In this document: piece by piece, positions 29,795-34,658 of the stretch
Layout of the letters: every line of letters starts with the position of its first letter
How positions within the stretch are numbered: the stretch's first letter is position 1
Assembly: GCA_910822395.1 (NCBI GenBank)
Contig: OU365335.1
Span: 1,116,001-1,180,000, forward strand
Reading direction: 5' to 3'
Source of the DNA: Pseudoclavibacter triregionum
GTDB taxonomy: Bacteria > Actinomycetota > Actinomycetes > Actinomycetales > Microbacteriaceae
Length of the DNA stretch: 64,000 nucleotides
The notes under the pieces: model-generated
The model's input: the letters and a program-made list of their open reading frames with translations, nothing else
What the model was told of the DNA's origin: nothing
Databases searched by the model: none
Position numbers and translations under genes: made by a program

Positions 29795-30934
29795 ATGTCG
29801 CAGATCGTCGGCGTCATCGGCGGAGGCCAGCTCGCGAGGATGATGATCCCTCCCGCCGTCGAGCTGGGGCTGGAGATCCGCGTCCTCGGCGAGGCCGAGG
29901 GCTCGAGCGCCCGCCCCGCCGTCACGCAGGTGGGCGACTACCGCGACGCCGAGACCGTCCTCGACTTCGCGAAGGACGTCGACGTCATCACCTTCGACCA
30001 CGAGCATGTCCCGCAGGACGTCCTCCGCGCCCTCGTCGACGCCGGCGTCGCCGTGCACCCCGGCCCCGACGCGCTCCGCTACGCCCAGGACAAGCTCGAG
30101 ATGCGACGCCGCCTCGCCGAGCTCGGCGCGCCCATGCCCGAGTGGGCCGCCTGCTCGAGCGTCGAGGAGATCGACGCCTTCCTCGCCGAGCACGGCGGGG
30201 AGGCCATCGCGAAGACGCCCCGCGGCGGCTACGACGGCAAGGGCGTGCGGGTCGTGCGCTCCGGCGCCGAGGCCGCCGACTGGCTCGCGTCGTTCGAGGC
30301 GATCCTCCTCGAGGAGAAGGTCGGCTTCCGCCGCGAGCTCGCCCAGCTCGTCGCTCGGCGGCCGAGCGGCGAGACGAGCTTCTGGCCCGTCGTCGAGACC
30401 GTGCAGCGCGACGGCGTGTGCGCCGAGGTCATCGCGCCCGCCCCGCTCACGGACGGCGCCGCCGTGCGCACCCGCGAGGTCGCGGTCGAGATCGCCGAGC
30501 TCATCGCGAGCGGCCTCGGCGTCACGGGCGTCCTCGCCGTCGAGCTCTTCGAGACGACCGACGAGCGCCTCCTCGTGAACGAGCTCGCCATGCGCCCCCA
30601 CAACTCCGGCCACTGGACGATCGACGGCTCCGCGACGAGCCAGTTCGAGCAGCACCTCCGCGCCGTGCTCGACCTGCCGCTCGGCGATCCGTCGATCCGC
30701 CAGCCCTGGTCGGTCATGATCAACCTCCTCGGCGGGCCGCAGGGCGAGGACATCACCGACCGCTTCCCGCTCGCCTGGTCGAAGCACCCCGGGGCGAAGC
30801 TCCACACCTACGGGAAGTCCGCGCGCCCCGGCCGCAAGGTCGGCCACGTCACCGTCTCGGGCCAGGACCTCGACGAGGTCGCGTACCGGGCGCGGGCCGC
30901 GGCGGCCTGCTTCGACGACGCGCCCGGTGAGTAG
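29795..30934 (+). CDS. purK: N5-carboxyaminoimidazole ribonucleotide synthase
   Basis: ATP-grasp enzyme of purine synthesis that converts AIR plus bicarbonate to N5-CAIR. The 379-residue protein has the N-terminal GVIGGGQLARMM loop, ATP-grasp segments AKTPRGGYDGKGVRVV and EEKVGFRRELAQLVAR, and the metal/substrate motif LLVNELAMRPHNSGHWTI. The start has a good ribosome binding site, GGGAAGAGGG. Its pathway partner purE is 3.1 kb downstream rather than adjacent; the hydrolase-lipoprotein island sits between them. Confidence 0.95.
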   Translation: MSQIVGVIGGGQLARMMIPPAVELGLEIRVLGEAEGSSARPAVTQVGDYRDAETVLDFAKDVDVITFDHEHVPQDVLRALVDAGVAVHPGPDALRYAQDKLEMRRRLAELGAPMPEWAACSSVEEIDAFLAEHGGEAIAKTPRGGYDGKGVRVVRSGAEAADWLASFEAILLEEKVGFRRELAQLVARRPSGETSFWPVVETVQRDGVCAEVIAPAPLTDGAAVRTREVAVEIAELIASGLGVTGVLAVELFETTDERLLVNELAMRPHNSGHWTIDGSATSQFEQHLRAVLDLPLGDPSIRQPWSVMINLLGGPQGEDITDRFPLAWSKHPGAKLHTYGKSARPGRKVGHVTVSGQDLDEVAYRARAAAACFDDAPGE

Positions 30935-31097: not shown

Positions 31098-32618
31098 TTG
31101 CCGCAGGGCATGCTCGGAGCGGATACGGATGCGCTGCGCGCGCTCGACCAGCGGGCCCAGGCGCTCGGCGTCCTCGTGCGCCACCTCGGGGATGCCGTGA
31201 GGGCCGAAGCGGAGTCCGTCGCGTGGTCCGGCCACGATGCCGAGCGCTTCCGGGCGAAGGCGGAGGAGATCTCGCATGCGACGCTGTGTCTGAGCCAGCG
31301 GCTGGGCAGGCTCGGGGCCGTGCTCGCGAACCAGGCTGCCGCGCAGGACATCGCGAGCTCGTCGCGGGAGGGGCGGAAGGCCGCCGGCGAGTCGCCTGGC
31401 GGCGATGGGTTCTCGAAGGCGGCGCCCGAGCTGCCGCTCGGCCCGGGGGTGCAGGCGGGACTCGGAGGCGCGGGAGGAGACGAGCCCGCCGAGGGGGAGA
31501 TCACCTCGGCCGACTATCCGGGCCTGTTTCCCGACGAGAAGCCGCTGGCCGAGTTGCGGCCTCGGCGTGAGGCCGAGCCGGTGCTCGACTCCCTCCTCGC
31601 TCTCGATGACCCCGCCGAGGTCGCCCGAGCCTGGGACGAGCTCGCGGCGAGCGACCCGGCCATGGCGGAGACGCTCGTCGACCTGTTCCATGAGGAGGTC
31701 GGCAACCTCGAAGGCGTGCCCTACTCCGTTCGCGACACCGCGAATCGGCTCACGCTCAGGGACTACCTCGACAGCCGAATGCACGCGAGAGGCGACGAGT
31801 ACCTCGCCGCCGTGGCCATCGCCGATGAGCTCGCGGAGGGGCGCGCCCATCCGACGCAGCTCGTGACGCTGGAGCCGATCCACGACAATGCCCCAGGCCC
31901 GCTCGCGGCCGCCATCTCCTACGGGGATCTCGATACCGCGAGCAACGCGACGTTCCTCGTGCCGGGGATGCGCAGCGACGCGGGTGCGGACGTGTTGACG
32001 AGCCAGGGTGACGCCGCCTCTAACCTCCTAGAGAGATTGGCCACGAGCGGGCAGACTCCTGAGGACTCTGCCGTCGTGTCGTGGGTCGGCTACGACACGC
32101 CCGAGCTCGCTGAAGAGCCCTTCCTCGACCGCGCGAACGACGGCGCGCTCCGGCTGGGGGAGGCGCTCGAGGGCTACTCCGGCCGGAACGCGCCGTCCGA
32201 GCACACGCTCAACGTGGTCGCGTTCTCCTACGGCACGACGACGACCGGCCAGGCGCTCTTCACCGGCGGCGACACCTACGGCGTCGACAACGTCGTGCTG
32301 CTGGGCTCGGCCGGGCTGAGCGACGAGGCGCGGGGCTTCCGCGACGACGCGGCCGACGCCCCCGATGTGTTCGTCACGGACGCCGCGCGCGATGAGCTCA
32401 ACAATGTGGGACAGGCCTGGTGGACGGGCTCGCAGCACCAGCACGACCCCAGGAGCTACCCCTGGGCGACGTCGTTCGGGTCGGACGGCGTCGAGGGCGA
32501 TCCGACGAGGCTCGGCGTGGCGGATCACACGCTCGGGCGGCCGGATGCGGTCGGGTATCTCTCGAAGAACAGCGAGAGTCTGGGGTTCGTGGCGCAGGCG
32601 CTGACGGATGGAGTCTGA
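31098..32618 (+). CDS. WXG-motif plus DUF1023 alpha/beta-hydrolase
   Basis: The 506-residue protein starts at TTG with AAGGGAGA 5 bases upstream (ATG 31110 is the alternative). The N-terminal 85 residues form a helical bundle with a WSG motif (AVRAEAESVAWSGHDAERFR), like WXG100-type domains of type VII-secreted proteins. A linker rich in Ala, Glu and Gly follows. The C-terminal DUF1023 hydrolase has TFLVPGMRSDAG, SWVGYDTPE and the nucleophile serine in VVAFSYGTTTTG. No signal peptide is visible. The stop overlaps the first lipoprotein gene (TGATG). Codon choice is less biased than in neighbours (more CTG and GAT). It may be a secreted effector or enzyme with lipoprotein partners; its activity is unknown. 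Confidence 0.78.
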   Translation: MPQGMLGADTDALRALDQRAQALGVLVRHLGDAVRAEAESVAWSGHDAERFRAKAEEISHATLCLSQRLGRLGAVLANQAAAQDIASSSREGRKAAGESPGGDGFSKAAPELPLGPGVQAGLGGAGGDEPAEGEITSADYPGLFPDEKPLAELRPRREAEPVLDSLLALDDPAEVARAWDELAASDPAMAETLVDLFHEEVGNLEGVPYSVRDTANRLTLRDYLDSRMHARGDEYLAAVAIADELAEGRAHPTQLVTLEPIHDNAPGPLAAAISYGDLDTASNATFLVPGMRSDAGADVLTSQGDAASNLLERLATSGQTPEDSAVVSWVGYDTPELAEEPFLDRANDGALRLGEALEGYSGRNAPSEHTLNVVAFSYGTTTTGQALFTGGDTYGVDNVVLLGSAGLSDEARGFRDDAADAPDVFVTDAARDELNNVGQAWWTGSQHQHDPRSYPWATSFGSDGVEGDPTRLGVADHTLGRPDAVGYLSKNSESLGFVAQALTDGV

Positions 32619-33244
32619 TGCGAGGTCGTCGGCGGGCGGTGGCGGGCGTGTGGCTGGCGCTGTGCGCGCTGGTCGGGTGCGTGCTGGTCGGGTGCGAGGA
32701 GGAGAGGGCGGGCATGGAGGCGTCGGATGAGGAGTACGACCGGGCGGTGGCGTTCTTCGAGTCGTATCTGGGCGAGGTCGATGAGGTGCAGCTGGCGATC
32801 TCGGACGAGGCGTGGTGGTTCATCGACTACGGCAACCGGCCTCAGTCGTGCGAGCACGGCCCGGGCGCCGGCTTCGGGACCACTCGGGGAACGCCGTTCG
32901 AGGGCGGCGGGGTGCCGACGGATGTCGAGGAGGTGCGGGCTCGGCTTGCTGCGTCGGGGTTCGAGGTCGGGGAGGTGAGCGCGCGGATCCCGAACGAGCT
33001 GTCGTTCCTCGTGACGGGGGAACTCGGCAGGTGGCGGGTCGTCTTGTTCGAGGGCCGCCGATGGGCCGTGACCGGCTCGAGCTTCTGCGTGGATGTCGAT
33101 CGCAAGGCGGTGCGGCGGGCGATGAATCTGGCCGGCTTCGACTACCTCTCGAACCAGGAGCTGTGGCTGCGGCCGGGCGAGCGGCTGCCGATCGGTCGCG
33201 GGCAGACGCCCGCGCCGATGCCGACCGAGCGGCCTGCCCCGTAG
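32618..33244 (+). CDS. Lipoprotein, first copy of tandem pair
   Basis: Not recognised by family. The 208-residue protein has a basic start, a hydrophobic segment and two overlapping lipoboxes (ALVGC at Cys21 and VLVGC at Cys26), so it should be anchored outside the membrane. The mature part contains SDEAWWFIDYGNRP, cysteines near 78 and 157 that could pair, and a Pro-rich tail. The start overlaps the hydrolase stop by one base (TGATG), so production is coupled. The second copy differs at 10 residues, four of them clustered at 88-94. An immunity or partner role for the upstream hydrolase is inferred from this arrangement only. Confidence 0.8.
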   Translation: MRGRRRAVAGVWLALCALVGCVLVGCEEERAGMEASDEEYDRAVAFFESYLGEVDEVQLAISDEAWWFIDYGNRPQSCEHGPGAGFGTTRGTPFEGGGVPTDVEEVRARLAASGFEVGEVSARIPNELSFLVTGELGRWRVVLFEGRRWAVTGSSFCVDVDRKAVRRAMNLAGFDYLSNQELWLRPGERLPIGRGQTPAPMPTERPAP

Positions 33245-33297
33245 AGGGGGTCGAGGGGAGGGGGCCCGTCGAGAAGGGCGGGGCCCGTCAGGGGACG

Positions 33298-33345
33298 GCG
33301 AGAGTCTGGCCTTCGTGGTGCAGGCGCTGACGGATGGAGTCTGAT
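33298..33345 (+). pseudogene. Remnant of the DUF1023 gene 3' end
   Basis: GAGAGTCTGG ... GTCTGA encodes ESLAFVVQALTDGV and a stop, nearly identical to the hydrolase C-terminus ESLGFVAQALTDGV. No upstream hydrolase sequence precedes it; the region 33245-33297 is GC-rich filler. The duplicated junction TGATG into the second lipoprotein gene is preserved. Confidence 0.85.
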
Positions 33346-33970
33346 GCGGGGTCGTCGGCGGGCGGTGGCGGGCGTGTGGCTGGCGCTGTGCGCGCTGGTC
33401 GGGTGCGTGCTGGTCGGGTGCGAGGAGGAGAGGGCGGGCATGGAGGCGTCGGATGAGGAGTACGACCGGGCGGTGGCGTTCTTCGAGTCGTATCTGGGCG
33501 AGGTCGATGAGGTGGAGCTGGCGATCTCGGATGAGGCGTGGTGGTTCAACGACTACGGCAACCGGCCTCGGTCGTGCGAGCACGGCCCGGGCGCCGGCTT
33601 CGGGATAGACCGCCGTACGCCGATGGAGGGCGGCGGGGTGCCGACGGATGTCGAGGAGGTGCGGGCTCGGCTTGCTGCGTCGGGGTTCGAGGTCGGGGAG
33701 GTGAGCGCGCGGATCCCGAACGAGCTGTCGTTCCTCGTGACGGGGGAACTCGGCAGGTGGCGGGTCGTCTTGTTCGAGGGCCGCCGATGGTTCGTGACCG
33801 GCTCGAGCTTCTGCGTGGATGTCGATCCCAAGGCGGTGCGGCGGTCGATGAATCTGGCCGGCTTCGACTACCTCTCGAACCAGGAGCTGTGGCTGCGGCC
33901 GGGCGAGCGGCTGCCGATCGGTCGCGGGCAGACGCCCGCGCCCATGCCGACCGAGCGGCCCGCGCCGTAG
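33344..33970 (+). CDS. Lipoprotein, second copy of tandem pair
   Basis: A 208-residue paralogue of the preceding gene with an identical first 57 residues, including both lipoboxes. Compared codon by codon, 10 codons change an amino acid and 6 are silent. The changes are Q58E, I69N, Q77R, T88I, T89D, G91R, F94M, A150F, R162P and A168S. The reading frame is intact, which argues that the copy is used. Because the upstream hydrolase is only a 15-codon remnant here, it has lost its original translational coupling and must rely on read-through transcription or an unseen promoter. The function is unknown. Confidence 0.78.
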   Translation: MRGRRRAVAGVWLALCALVGCVLVGCEEERAGMEASDEEYDRAVAFFESYLGEVDEVELAISDEAWWFNDYGNRPRSCEHGPGAGFGIDRRTPMEGGGVPTDVEEVRARLAASGFEVGEVSARIPNELSFLVTGELGRWRVVLFEGRRWFVTGSSFCVDVDPKAVRRSMNLAGFDYLSNQELWLRPGERLPIGRGQTPAPMPTERPAP

Positions 33971-34072
33971 GGCGGGCTGAGCGGAGGGGGAGACTCGGCT
34001 GGGCCGCGCCGGACGCGCGAGGACGCTCCCGCCGGAGCGGGGCGGCCACCGGCGCGGGGCCGGCGCTTTGCG

Positions 34073-34085: not shown

Positions 34086-34658
34086 ATGACGGTCCCTCCC
34101 CCCACACCCCCCTCCGGCCACGAGGACTCCGCTACCGGCCCGTCCGCTCCGCCCGACGGAGCTCCGCTCGTCGGCCTCATCATGGGCTCCGACTCCGACT
34201 GGCGCGTCATGCACGAGGCGCACGACGTGCTCGTCGAGCTCGGCATCCCGGTCGAGGTCGAGGTCGTCTCCGCGCACCGGACGCCCGAGAAGATGGTCCG
34301 CTACGGCCGCGAGGCCGCCGGCCGGGGCCTCCGCGTCATCATCGCGGGCGCGGGCGGCGCCGCCCACCTGCCGGGCATGACCGCCTCGCTCACGACCCTC
34401 CCCGTCATCGGCGTGCCCGTGCCGCTCGCGACGCTCGACGGCATGGACTCGCTCCTCTCGATCGTGCAGATGCCGGGCGGCATCCCCGTCGCGACGGTCT
34501 CGATCGGCGGCGCGAAGAACGCGGGCCTCCTCGCCGCGCGCATCATCGGCGCGGGCGATCCGGCCGTCGCCGCGAAGCTCGCCGACTACGCCGCCTCGCT
34601 CGAGGCGATGGTGGCCGAGAAGAGCGAGGCGCTCAAGGCGCGCATCGCGGACGCCTGA
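34086..34658 (+). CDS. purE: N5-carboxyaminoimidazole ribonucleotide mutase
   Basis: Converts N5-CAIR to CAIR in purine synthesis, the step after PurK. The 190-residue protein has a Pro-rich N-terminal extension of about 25 residues and then the typical core: [28 protein letters not shown] with the catalytic histidine, and [16 protein letters not shown]. The start is fixed by the leaderless promoter. The stop overlaps the LCP gene start (TGATG). Confidence 0.95.

What the first reader, a model, noticed from the sequence alone, without database searches (positions are those of the whole stretch)
31098..33990. WXG-motif/DUF1023 hydrolase coupled to a tandemly duplicated, diverging lipoprotein: candidate effector-partner system
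The hydrolase has an N-terminal helical bundle with a WSG motif and no signal peptide, as in type VII-secreted proteins, followed by a DUF1023 alpha/beta-hydrolase with serine nucleophile (FSYGT). Its stop overlaps a lipoprotein gene, and that gene is duplicated in tandem (726-bp period). The copies differ at 10 residues, four within residues 88-94, while the first 57 residues are identical. Duplicated downstream partners with local divergence are typical of immunity or receptor genes. The block also uses more CTG and GAT than neighbours, and it separates purK from purE. I know of no described system of this exact layout; the functional reading is inference.
Basis: partly seen in the sequence, partly recalled or inferred. 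Interest (0 to 1): 0.75.

Follow-up and report, generated by a model that had tools for sequence, protein, structure and literature searches.

The report
Secreted-hydrolase toxin with twin guard lipoproteins
An actinobacterium carries a probable export-tagged, lipase-like enzyme whose gene runs straight into two near-identical membrane-anchored lipoprotein genes; the same pairing recurs in many related bacteria, which suggests an antibacterial enzyme kept in check by its guard proteins.

Summary
The observation checks out in every detail: a WXG-hairpin/PF06259 (DUF1023) hydrolase whose stop overlaps a lipoprotein start, a 726-bp tandem copy differing at 10 residues, deviant codon usage, purK split from purE. 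The reading is supported and generalises. The N-terminal domain is shared by nine longer genes of this genome (two with an internal stop) with different C-termini (Ntox44, DUF6973, others), and occurs in the same 3 of 10 genomes of the genus that hold one T7SS-type ATPase. Hydrolase plus lipoprotein recurs in relatives (56 of the 80 best named loci; 21 with repeated lipoproteins); the two co-diverge (r 0.87), and 34 of 35 lipoproteins link into one family without a Pfam or NCBIfam model. Closest known: TslA-TilA and TelC-TipC, T7SS toxins with surface-anchored immunity proteins in several copies. In a probably mycobacterial genus, 44 of 50 clusters of the LppA lipoproteins (PF16708, function unknown) sit just behind a PF06259 hydrolase, so LppA may be the same kind of immunity protein. 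Against: LppA is not related to the window family by sequence above noise, and the fold match is weak; many PF06259 hydrolases lack a lipoprotein. Secretion, toxicity, substrate, binding and protection are inferred. New variant of a known kind.

The parts
31098..32618 (+). effector-like hydrolase gene (506 aa from TTG 31098; alternative start ATG 31110)
   Evidence: PF06259 E 9.7e-19; start by homology to paralogues
31098..31385 (+). N-terminal WXG hairpin domain (residues 1-96), inferred export signal
   Evidence: alignment A1, invariant W43, G45, D47, A48; same domain in other genes of this genome and two others of the genus; helix-turn-helix in the AF2 model
31905..32408 (+). alpha/beta-hydrolase (Abhydrolase_8/DUF1023) domain, residues 270-437
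   Evidence: model matches esterases and lipases in the PDB, best E 4e-7
32226..32228 (+). putative nucleophile S377 (FSYGT)
   Evidence: invariant in A3 and A6, checked
32391..32393 (+). putative catalytic acid D432
   Evidence: nearly invariant in A6; role inferred
32526..32528 (+). putative catalytic H477
   Evidence: invariant in A6; role inferred
32616..32620 (+). TGATG stop/start overlap of hydrolase and lipoprotein 1
   Evidence: sequence; short overlaps recur in relatives
32618..33244 (+). lipoprotein 1 (208 aa; lipobox Cys21 or Cys26; conserved W66/67, G114, C157, and C78 in one alignment)
33295..33343 (+). start of the repeat unit: scrap of the hydrolase 3' end in front of lipoprotein 2
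33344..33970 (+). lipoprotein 2 (208 aa, 95% identical to lipoprotein 1)
29795..30934 (+). purK, left flank of the insertion
34182..34658 (+). purE, right flank (close behind purK in the 9 other genomes of the genus)

Best explanation
The block is an effector-immunity cassette of this genome's type VII secretion system. The WXG hairpin (inferred) guides the hydrolase out through the T7SS. The alpha/beta-hydrolase domain (serine esterase/lipase fold; S377, D432, H477) then attacks an acyl ester at or outside the membrane of a neighbouring cell, most likely a lipid (inferred). The lipoprotein, coupled to it by the overlapping stop and start, is lipid-anchored on the outer face of the producer's membrane, where it binds and blocks the enzyme (inferred). 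The second copy is a duplicated immunity gene that is diverging, either as spare dosage or to match rivals' hydrolase variants (inferred). Shown here: domains, overlap, duplication, insertion, WXG family, co-occurrence with a T7SS-type ATPase, recurrence and co-divergence of the pair. Not shown: secretion, toxicity, substrate, binding, protection.
For: (a) N-terminal domain: 11 matches in this genome (the window's own included); two are small WXG100 genes at the T7SS-type locus, nine are longer genes, two of them with an internal stop, with different C-termini: Ntox44, DUF6973 (both above the Pfam cut-off), a weak nuclease match and others. (b) The domain family is in 3 of 10 genomes of the genus, the same three that hold a full-length copy (72-100% identical) of the 1487-aa FHA-FtsK ATPase. 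That ATPase matches EssC TIGR03928 at E 1e-164 but below that model's cut-off; three WXG100-type genes follow it, one above the cut-off. (c) The hydrolase has a match in 82 of 150 family genomes. Of 99 places examined, 35 have a lipoprotein-like ORF starting -70..+250 from the stop and 23 start within -20..+5, against 6 and 2 of 151 other genes of the fetched loci (Fisher 1e-8 for 23/99 against 2/151). In the 80 named loci: 56 and 35, and 21 with two or more tblastn pieces of at least 30% identity; the two sets overlap in part. (d) From the lipoprotein side: 72 strong hits in 49 clusters of 34 genomes, 15 with several hits; 44 of 49 have a PF06259-like hydrolase just upstream on the same strand. 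(e) The window lipoproteins belong to that family: 24-27 bits with a profile of 35 others against a best shuffle of 7.6 in 2000. (f) Co-divergence of the pair: Mantel r 0.87 over 54 loci, 0 of 2000 permutations. (g) Among ten homologues or the window protein scanned, one carries PF21725 'putative T7SS secretion signal' above the cut-off (E 4.6e-15); below cut-off, one WXG100 (E 1.5e-4) and one further PF21725. (h) The Ntox44-type WXG gene of this genome also overlaps a lipoprotein gene, and so, by eye, does its like in G136.
Against: No experiment and no complex model. 64 of 99 family places and 24 of 80 named loci have no lipoprotein by my detector (which missed at least two, L148 and L165). 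A second PF06259 gene of this genome (L002) shows none. Test (d) is partly circular: 20 of the 22 profile rows come from hydrolase-linked lipoproteins of the same genomes; among ten loci reached only from the lipoprotein side (L285-L294), seven have the hydrolase (one weak, E 1.7e-6) and L287, L292, L294 do not. dN/dS between the copies is 0.5. Other genomes of the genus hold more distant FtsK/EssC-like ATPases, up to 33% over a long stretch in G150, yet no such WXG family. The Mantel test does not remove shared descent. The window protein itself hits only PF06259 in Pfam and nothing in NCBIfam; its WXG assignment rests on paralogues, motif and a mid-confidence model. Seven of the ten proteins show no T7SS domain.
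Confidence: 0.68

Rival explanations
1. Housekeeping envelope enzyme: an exported esterase works on the cell's own lipids or on nutrients, and the lipoprotein is a membrane-bound chaperone or activator (foldase-like).
For: PF06259 genes without any lipoprotein are widespread. Eleven family loci have a lipoprotein of the family at +22..+92 rather than overlapping, three of them with a gatC-like gene behind (L021, L118, L132). A surface lipoprotein next to a lipase is also compatible with a foldase.
Against: At purK-purE in one of ten genomes of the genus; arrays of up to six lipoprotein domains and local divergence of copies are unusual for foldases (recalled); the N-terminus is shared with toxin-like proteins.
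Confidence: 0.17
2. The hydrolase acts on eukaryotic hosts or grazers, and the lipoproteins are surface antigens or receptors carried along with it.
For: LppA-type lipoproteins have been discussed as possible antigens (PMC4770551, passages), and TilA-type ones were linked to host-cell invasion and immune stimulation before their immunity role was shown (PMC10730906 section 9).
Against: The pair occurs in Microbacterium, Curtobacterium, Leifsonia and other genera; tight coupling with co-divergence is what an immunity pair needs and a host antigen does not.
Confidence: 0.06
3. The second lipoprotein is a recent duplicate with no separate role; only lipoprotein 1 matters. (This leaves the effector-immunity reading intact.)
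For: 95% identity, dN/dS 0.5, repeat unit carries a scrap of the hydrolase gene; in TelC-TipC only the toxin-adjacent TipC of the ones tested inhibits or binds (PMC6193138 passages).
Against: Tandem copies, mostly 43-93% identical, are kept at 10 or more of the 35 family loci with a lipoprotein (flanks of 1.5-2.3 kb for most, so a lower bound); four changes sit in one 7-codon stretch.
Confidence: 0.4

Closest known systems
TslA-TilA (S. aureus T7SSb lipase toxin and DUF576 immunity lipoprotein; PMC10730906: abstract, sections 6 and 9 read)
   Same: T7SS-linked lipase, adjacent lipoprotein inhibitor, lipoprotein paralogues in tandem and in variable number
   Different: [quoted passage not shown] DUF576 lipoprotein encoded before the toxin gene; Bacillota
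TelC-TipC (Streptococcus intermedius; PMC6193138: section 8 and passages read)
   Same: T7SS toxin acting outside the cytoplasm, surface-anchored immunity protein, several paralogues of it in the operon
   Different: lipid II phosphatase; TipC has a transmembrane anchor, not a lipobox
LppA family, PF16708 (solved structure 2v7s)
   Same: lipoprotein just downstream of a PF06259 hydrolase in 44 of 50 clusters, 7 clusters with 2-3 copies; 2v7s has the best TM-scores of the 50 rows shown for the window lipoprotein model (rank 8 by E)
   Different: no sequence relation above noise (10.9 bits against a best shuffle of 10.7; hhalign probability 37%); fold match weak (E 0.11, TM 0.33/0.39, rmsd 9.8); function unknown
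Polymorphic toxin systems (PMC3482391, one passage read)
   Same: shared N-terminal trafficking domain, variable C-termini, partner gene downstream
   Different: the word DUF1023 does not occur in the held text (300,000 of 357,715 characters); Imm65 is named there as the only immunity lipoprotein of that collection

Membership tests
T7SS effector with N-terminal WXG-type domain | helical hairpin with W-x-G at the turn, no signal peptide | tested here: met
   (predicted model, pLDDT about 70 there; signal peptide judged by eye)
T7SS effector with N-terminal WXG-type domain | match of the window protein to a WXG100/LXG/T7SS-signal model | tested here: not met
   only PF06259 in Pfam, nothing in NCBIfam; a homologue matches PF21725 above cut-off
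T7SS effector with N-terminal WXG-type domain | T7SS (EccC/EssC-type ATPase plus WXG100) in the genome | tested here: met
   (ATPase below the NCBIfam cut-offs; one of three WXG100 genes above it)
T7SS effector with N-terminal WXG-type domain | ATPase-dependent secretion | not testable with these tools
   needs a secretion assay
Polymorphic toxin family | common N-terminus joined to different C-terminal domains with their own partner genes | tested here: met
PF06259 serine hydrolase | domain score above cut-off and conserved Ser, Asp, His | tested here: met
Immunity protein of this hydrolase family | encoded next to the toxin in relatives, co-diverging, outside the cytoplasm | tested here: met
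   location from the lipobox only
Immunity protein of this hydrolase family | binds and neutralises the toxin | not testable with these tools
   no two-chain modelling offered
LppA family (PF16708) | match to the Pfam model | tested here: not met
   no hit for the window lipoproteins or the 48 members of A5
LppA family (PF16708) | same fold | tested here: inconclusive
   2v7s TM 0.39, E 0.11
TslA family | C-terminal LXG-like targeting domain | tested here: not met
   the helical hairpin is N-terminal
T7SSd-type apparatus (PMC11217815: abstract, section 9 read) | WXG100, FHA-ATPase, kinase TsdD, TsdH, large Ig-like TsdI | tested here: inconclusive
   FHA-FtsK ATPase, WXG100 genes and a large protein beside MoxR-, DUF58- and transglutaminase-like genes (the last three and the large protein named by eye); kinase and TsdH not looked for

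The most novel reading that the evidence does not exclude
PF06259 hydrolases paired with lipoproteins are a phylum-wide class of type VII-secreted lipase effectors, and their overlapping, often tandem lipoproteins, including the LppA family of mycobacteria, are the cognate surface immunity proteins. The reported recombination and positive selection of lppA/lppB would then reflect immunity diversification rather than host immunity.
Probability: 0.42. Interest if true: 0.82.

Novelty: new variant of a known kind. Interest (0 to 1): 0.66.

Why it matters
It proposes a function for two uncharacterised families at once: DUF1023/PF06259 hydrolases with WXG-type N-termini as T7SS effectors, and a widespread, unnamed lipoprotein family as their immunity proteins. 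The linkage of PF16708 (LppA) with PF06259 makes an open question, what LppA-type lipoproteins do and why lppA/lppB are reported as selection and recombination hotspots, directly testable. It would also extend lipase-plus-lipoprotein antagonism from Bacillota T7SSb to Actinomycetota.

Tried and rejected
Lipoprotein as a Pfam or NCBIfam family: no hit for the window copies; six relatives scanned at E up to 5 and 47 more at E up to 1 gave only scattered sub-threshold matches. Direct search with the window lipoproteins alone: 1 of 150 family genomes (itself), and in 396 genomes of the order itself plus one weak match (E 2.6e-5) that lies in a glyoxalase-like gene; only the neighbourhood-derived profile revealed the family. 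Profile against PDB chains: best E 0.0056 (RcsF, profile positions 11-105), no LppA among the 25 rows. Fold search of the lipoprotein: no match at E 0.001 or better. Window-family profile on six of the seven lipoproteins found beside hydrolases elsewhere in the phylum: L319 clear (32 bits), L330 16 bits, four at noise. In the phylum sample 39 of 246 genomes have PF06259; of 23 loci inspected (L310-L332; the weak L333-L338 were left out, and L327 was probably read in the wrong frame) 7 have a lipoprotein-like ORF. First pass over the hydrolase loci ignored strand and was replaced. The all-against-all clustering included signal peptides; one search repeated the test on mature parts. Rows dropped before counting: the window genome, the G136 N-terminal matches and seven second fragments of one gene, hits weaker than 1e-7 or confined to the signal peptide. 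Control genes were chosen for strong coding bias and can include other WXG loci; the hydrolases were not so chosen.

Literature (listings and the passages named): 'DUF1023' with 'type VII secretion' gave 0 papers; 'DUF1023' 4 papers, none on this by listing and one passage; Abhydrolase_8/PF06259/T7SS_signal 6 papers, 4 listed, none on secretion by title; searches listed no paper that, by title, abstract start or the passages read, joins these hydrolases or LppA to an effector-immunity role. The library lacks most subscription papers, and most listed papers were not opened.

Full report
What is there. The block 31098-33970 lies between purK and purE. The first gene codes for a 506-aa protein with the Pfam domain Abhydrolase_8/DUF1023 (PF06259, E 1e-18). 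Its stop codon shares one base with the start of a 208-aa lipoprotein gene, which is repeated 726 bp further on. The repeat starts in the last 50 nt of the hydrolase gene, which points to a duplication in place. The copies differ by 22 nucleotides, 16 codons and 10 residues; four of the ten lie in residues 88-94.

The N-terminus is an export-type domain. Aligned with eight proteins from this genome and G136, residues 1-96 share G7-A8, L13-R14, W43-x-G45-x-D47-A48 and Q79-A80-x-x-Q83. The profile finds 11 places in this genome, 19 in G136 and 9 in G151, and none at E 0.001 in the other seven genomes of the genus. In this genome two of the 11 are small WXG100 genes; nine are longer genes (the window's included), two with an internal stop. 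The C-terminal parts differ: Ntox44 and DUF6973 above the Pfam cut-offs, a weak nuclease match, and another alpha/beta hydrolase by motif; in G136 a calpain domain. That is the build of a polymorphic toxin family. AlphaFold2 (34 sequences, mean pLDDT 81; about 70 in this part) draws residues 5-44 and 48-95 as a hairpin with W43-S-G45 at the turn, then a disordered linker, then the hydrolase.

The secretion system. At about 1.322-1.339 Mb of the genome lie a large protein, MoxR-like and DUF58-like genes (named by eye), a 1487-aa FHA-FtsK protein (EssC model E 1e-164, below its cut-off) and three WXG100-type genes, one above the cut-off. A full-length copy of the ATPase (72-78% identity) is present in G136 and G151; the other seven genomes have only more distant ones, the longest 33% identical in G150. 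The three genomes with the close ATPase are the three with the WXG domain family.

The hydrolase-lipoprotein pair recurs. With the hydrolase as query, 82 of 150 family genomes match. Of 99 places examined, 35 have a lipoprotein-like ORF starting -70..+250 from the stop, and 23 within -20..+5, against 6 and 2 of 151 control genes. At 10 of the 35 the lipoprotein is present in 2-3 tandem copies, 43-93% identical apart from one third copy, cut by the end of the locus, at 40%. This set overlaps the first in part. Of the 24 without, 18 have a signal-peptide-like start or a gatC-like motif downstream. From the other side, a profile of the lipoproteins found 72 strong hits in 49 clusters, and 44 of 49 have a PF06259-like hydrolase immediately upstream. 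Most of the profile rows came from such pairs, so the fairer figure is that of ten loci reached only from the lipoprotein: seven with the hydrolase, one of them weak, three without. One cluster holds six copies, pairs of which share one open frame. Hydrolase and lipoprotein distances correlate (r 0.87, 54 loci, 0 of 2000 permutations); shared descent contributes to this.

The lipoproteins are largely one family: 34 of 35 and the window copy link at E below 1e-3 with signal peptides included. On mature parts the window copies score 24-27 bits with a profile of the 35 against 7.6 for the best of 2000 shuffles. A tryptophan, a glycine and C157 are conserved in both alignments, C78 in one. No Pfam or NCBIfam model covers them. 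The AlphaFold2 model (48 sequences, pLDDT 74) is a helix plus a mixed sheet.

Link to LppA. No PDB structure matches that model well; the best TM-scores of the 50 rows shown are those of 2v7s, LppA of the tuberculosis bacillus (rank 8, E 0.11, TM 0.33/0.39). Independently, at L310 a PF06259 hydrolase overlaps a lipoprotein that matches the LppA Pfam model at 2e-58. In 78 genomes of that genus (unnamed; Mycobacterium is my inference), 60 LppA matches form 50 clusters in 36 genomes; 44 clusters have a PF06259 match ending less than 900 bp upstream on the same strand, and 7 clusters hold 2-3 copies. PF06259 is in 76 of the 78 genomes, LppA in 36, so many PF06259 genes there have no LppA. By sequence the window family and L310's lipoprotein cannot be told from noise. 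PMC4770551 (passages) reports recombination and selection in lppA/lppB and says their role should be investigated. From recall only: in the tuberculosis bacillus lppA and lppB are neighbours of such a hydrolase gene.

Mechanism. The simplest account is a T7SS-exported esterase or lipase that acts outside the cytoplasm, with an immunity lipoprotein at the outer face of the producer's membrane; a lipid anchor is where a lipase inhibitor would be useful. TslA-TilA shows the same logic experimentally: phospholipase, tightly binding lipoprotein inhibitor, variable tandem lipoproteins earlier linked to host-cell invasion (PMC10730906 sections 6 and 9). TelC-TipC shows several surface immunity paralogues of which the adjacent one inhibits (PMC6193138 section 8 and passages). 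The lipocone paper states that the immunity proteins it describes for that other toxin class are all membrane or lipoproteins (PMC12419801 passage). A foldase or activator role remains the main rival. Secretion, toxicity, substrate, binding and protection are all untested.

Noticed in passing
L049 1-16907 (about 1322000-1339000 of the genome): T7SS-type locus with FHA-FtsK ATPase, three WXG100-type genes, MoxR-, DUF58- and transglutaminase-like genes (last three by eye); resembles T7SSd only in part.
   Followed up: partly
L035 4952-6422: WXG/DUF6973 gene of this genome with an internal stop in its N-terminal domain while the overlapping lipoprotein gene downstream is open: looks like a leftover immunity gene.
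   Followed up: no
L037 5120-8695: WXG protein with a weak nuclease match followed by two tandem genes that by eye are paralogues of each other and have no Pfam or NCBIfam hit: a second case of doubled partner genes.
   Followed up: no
L085 and L090; L294 and L295: Another alpha/beta-hydrolase type by motif: with WXG N-terminus and a non-lipoprotein partner in the genus, and near lipoproteins of the window family in other genera.
   Followed up: no
L285 5448-8327: Array of six lipoprotein domains behind one hydrolase, pairs of them in one open frame.
   Followed up: partly
L021, L118, L297: PF06259 gene, then a related lipoprotein at a short distance, then a gatC-like gene; possible housekeeping ancestor of the cassette.
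   Followed up: partly
G614, G800, G807; G591, G772: Weaker PF06259 matches, in the first three several per frame, inside open frames of 4,000-21,000 aa; unexplained (perhaps large synthetases).
   Followed up: no
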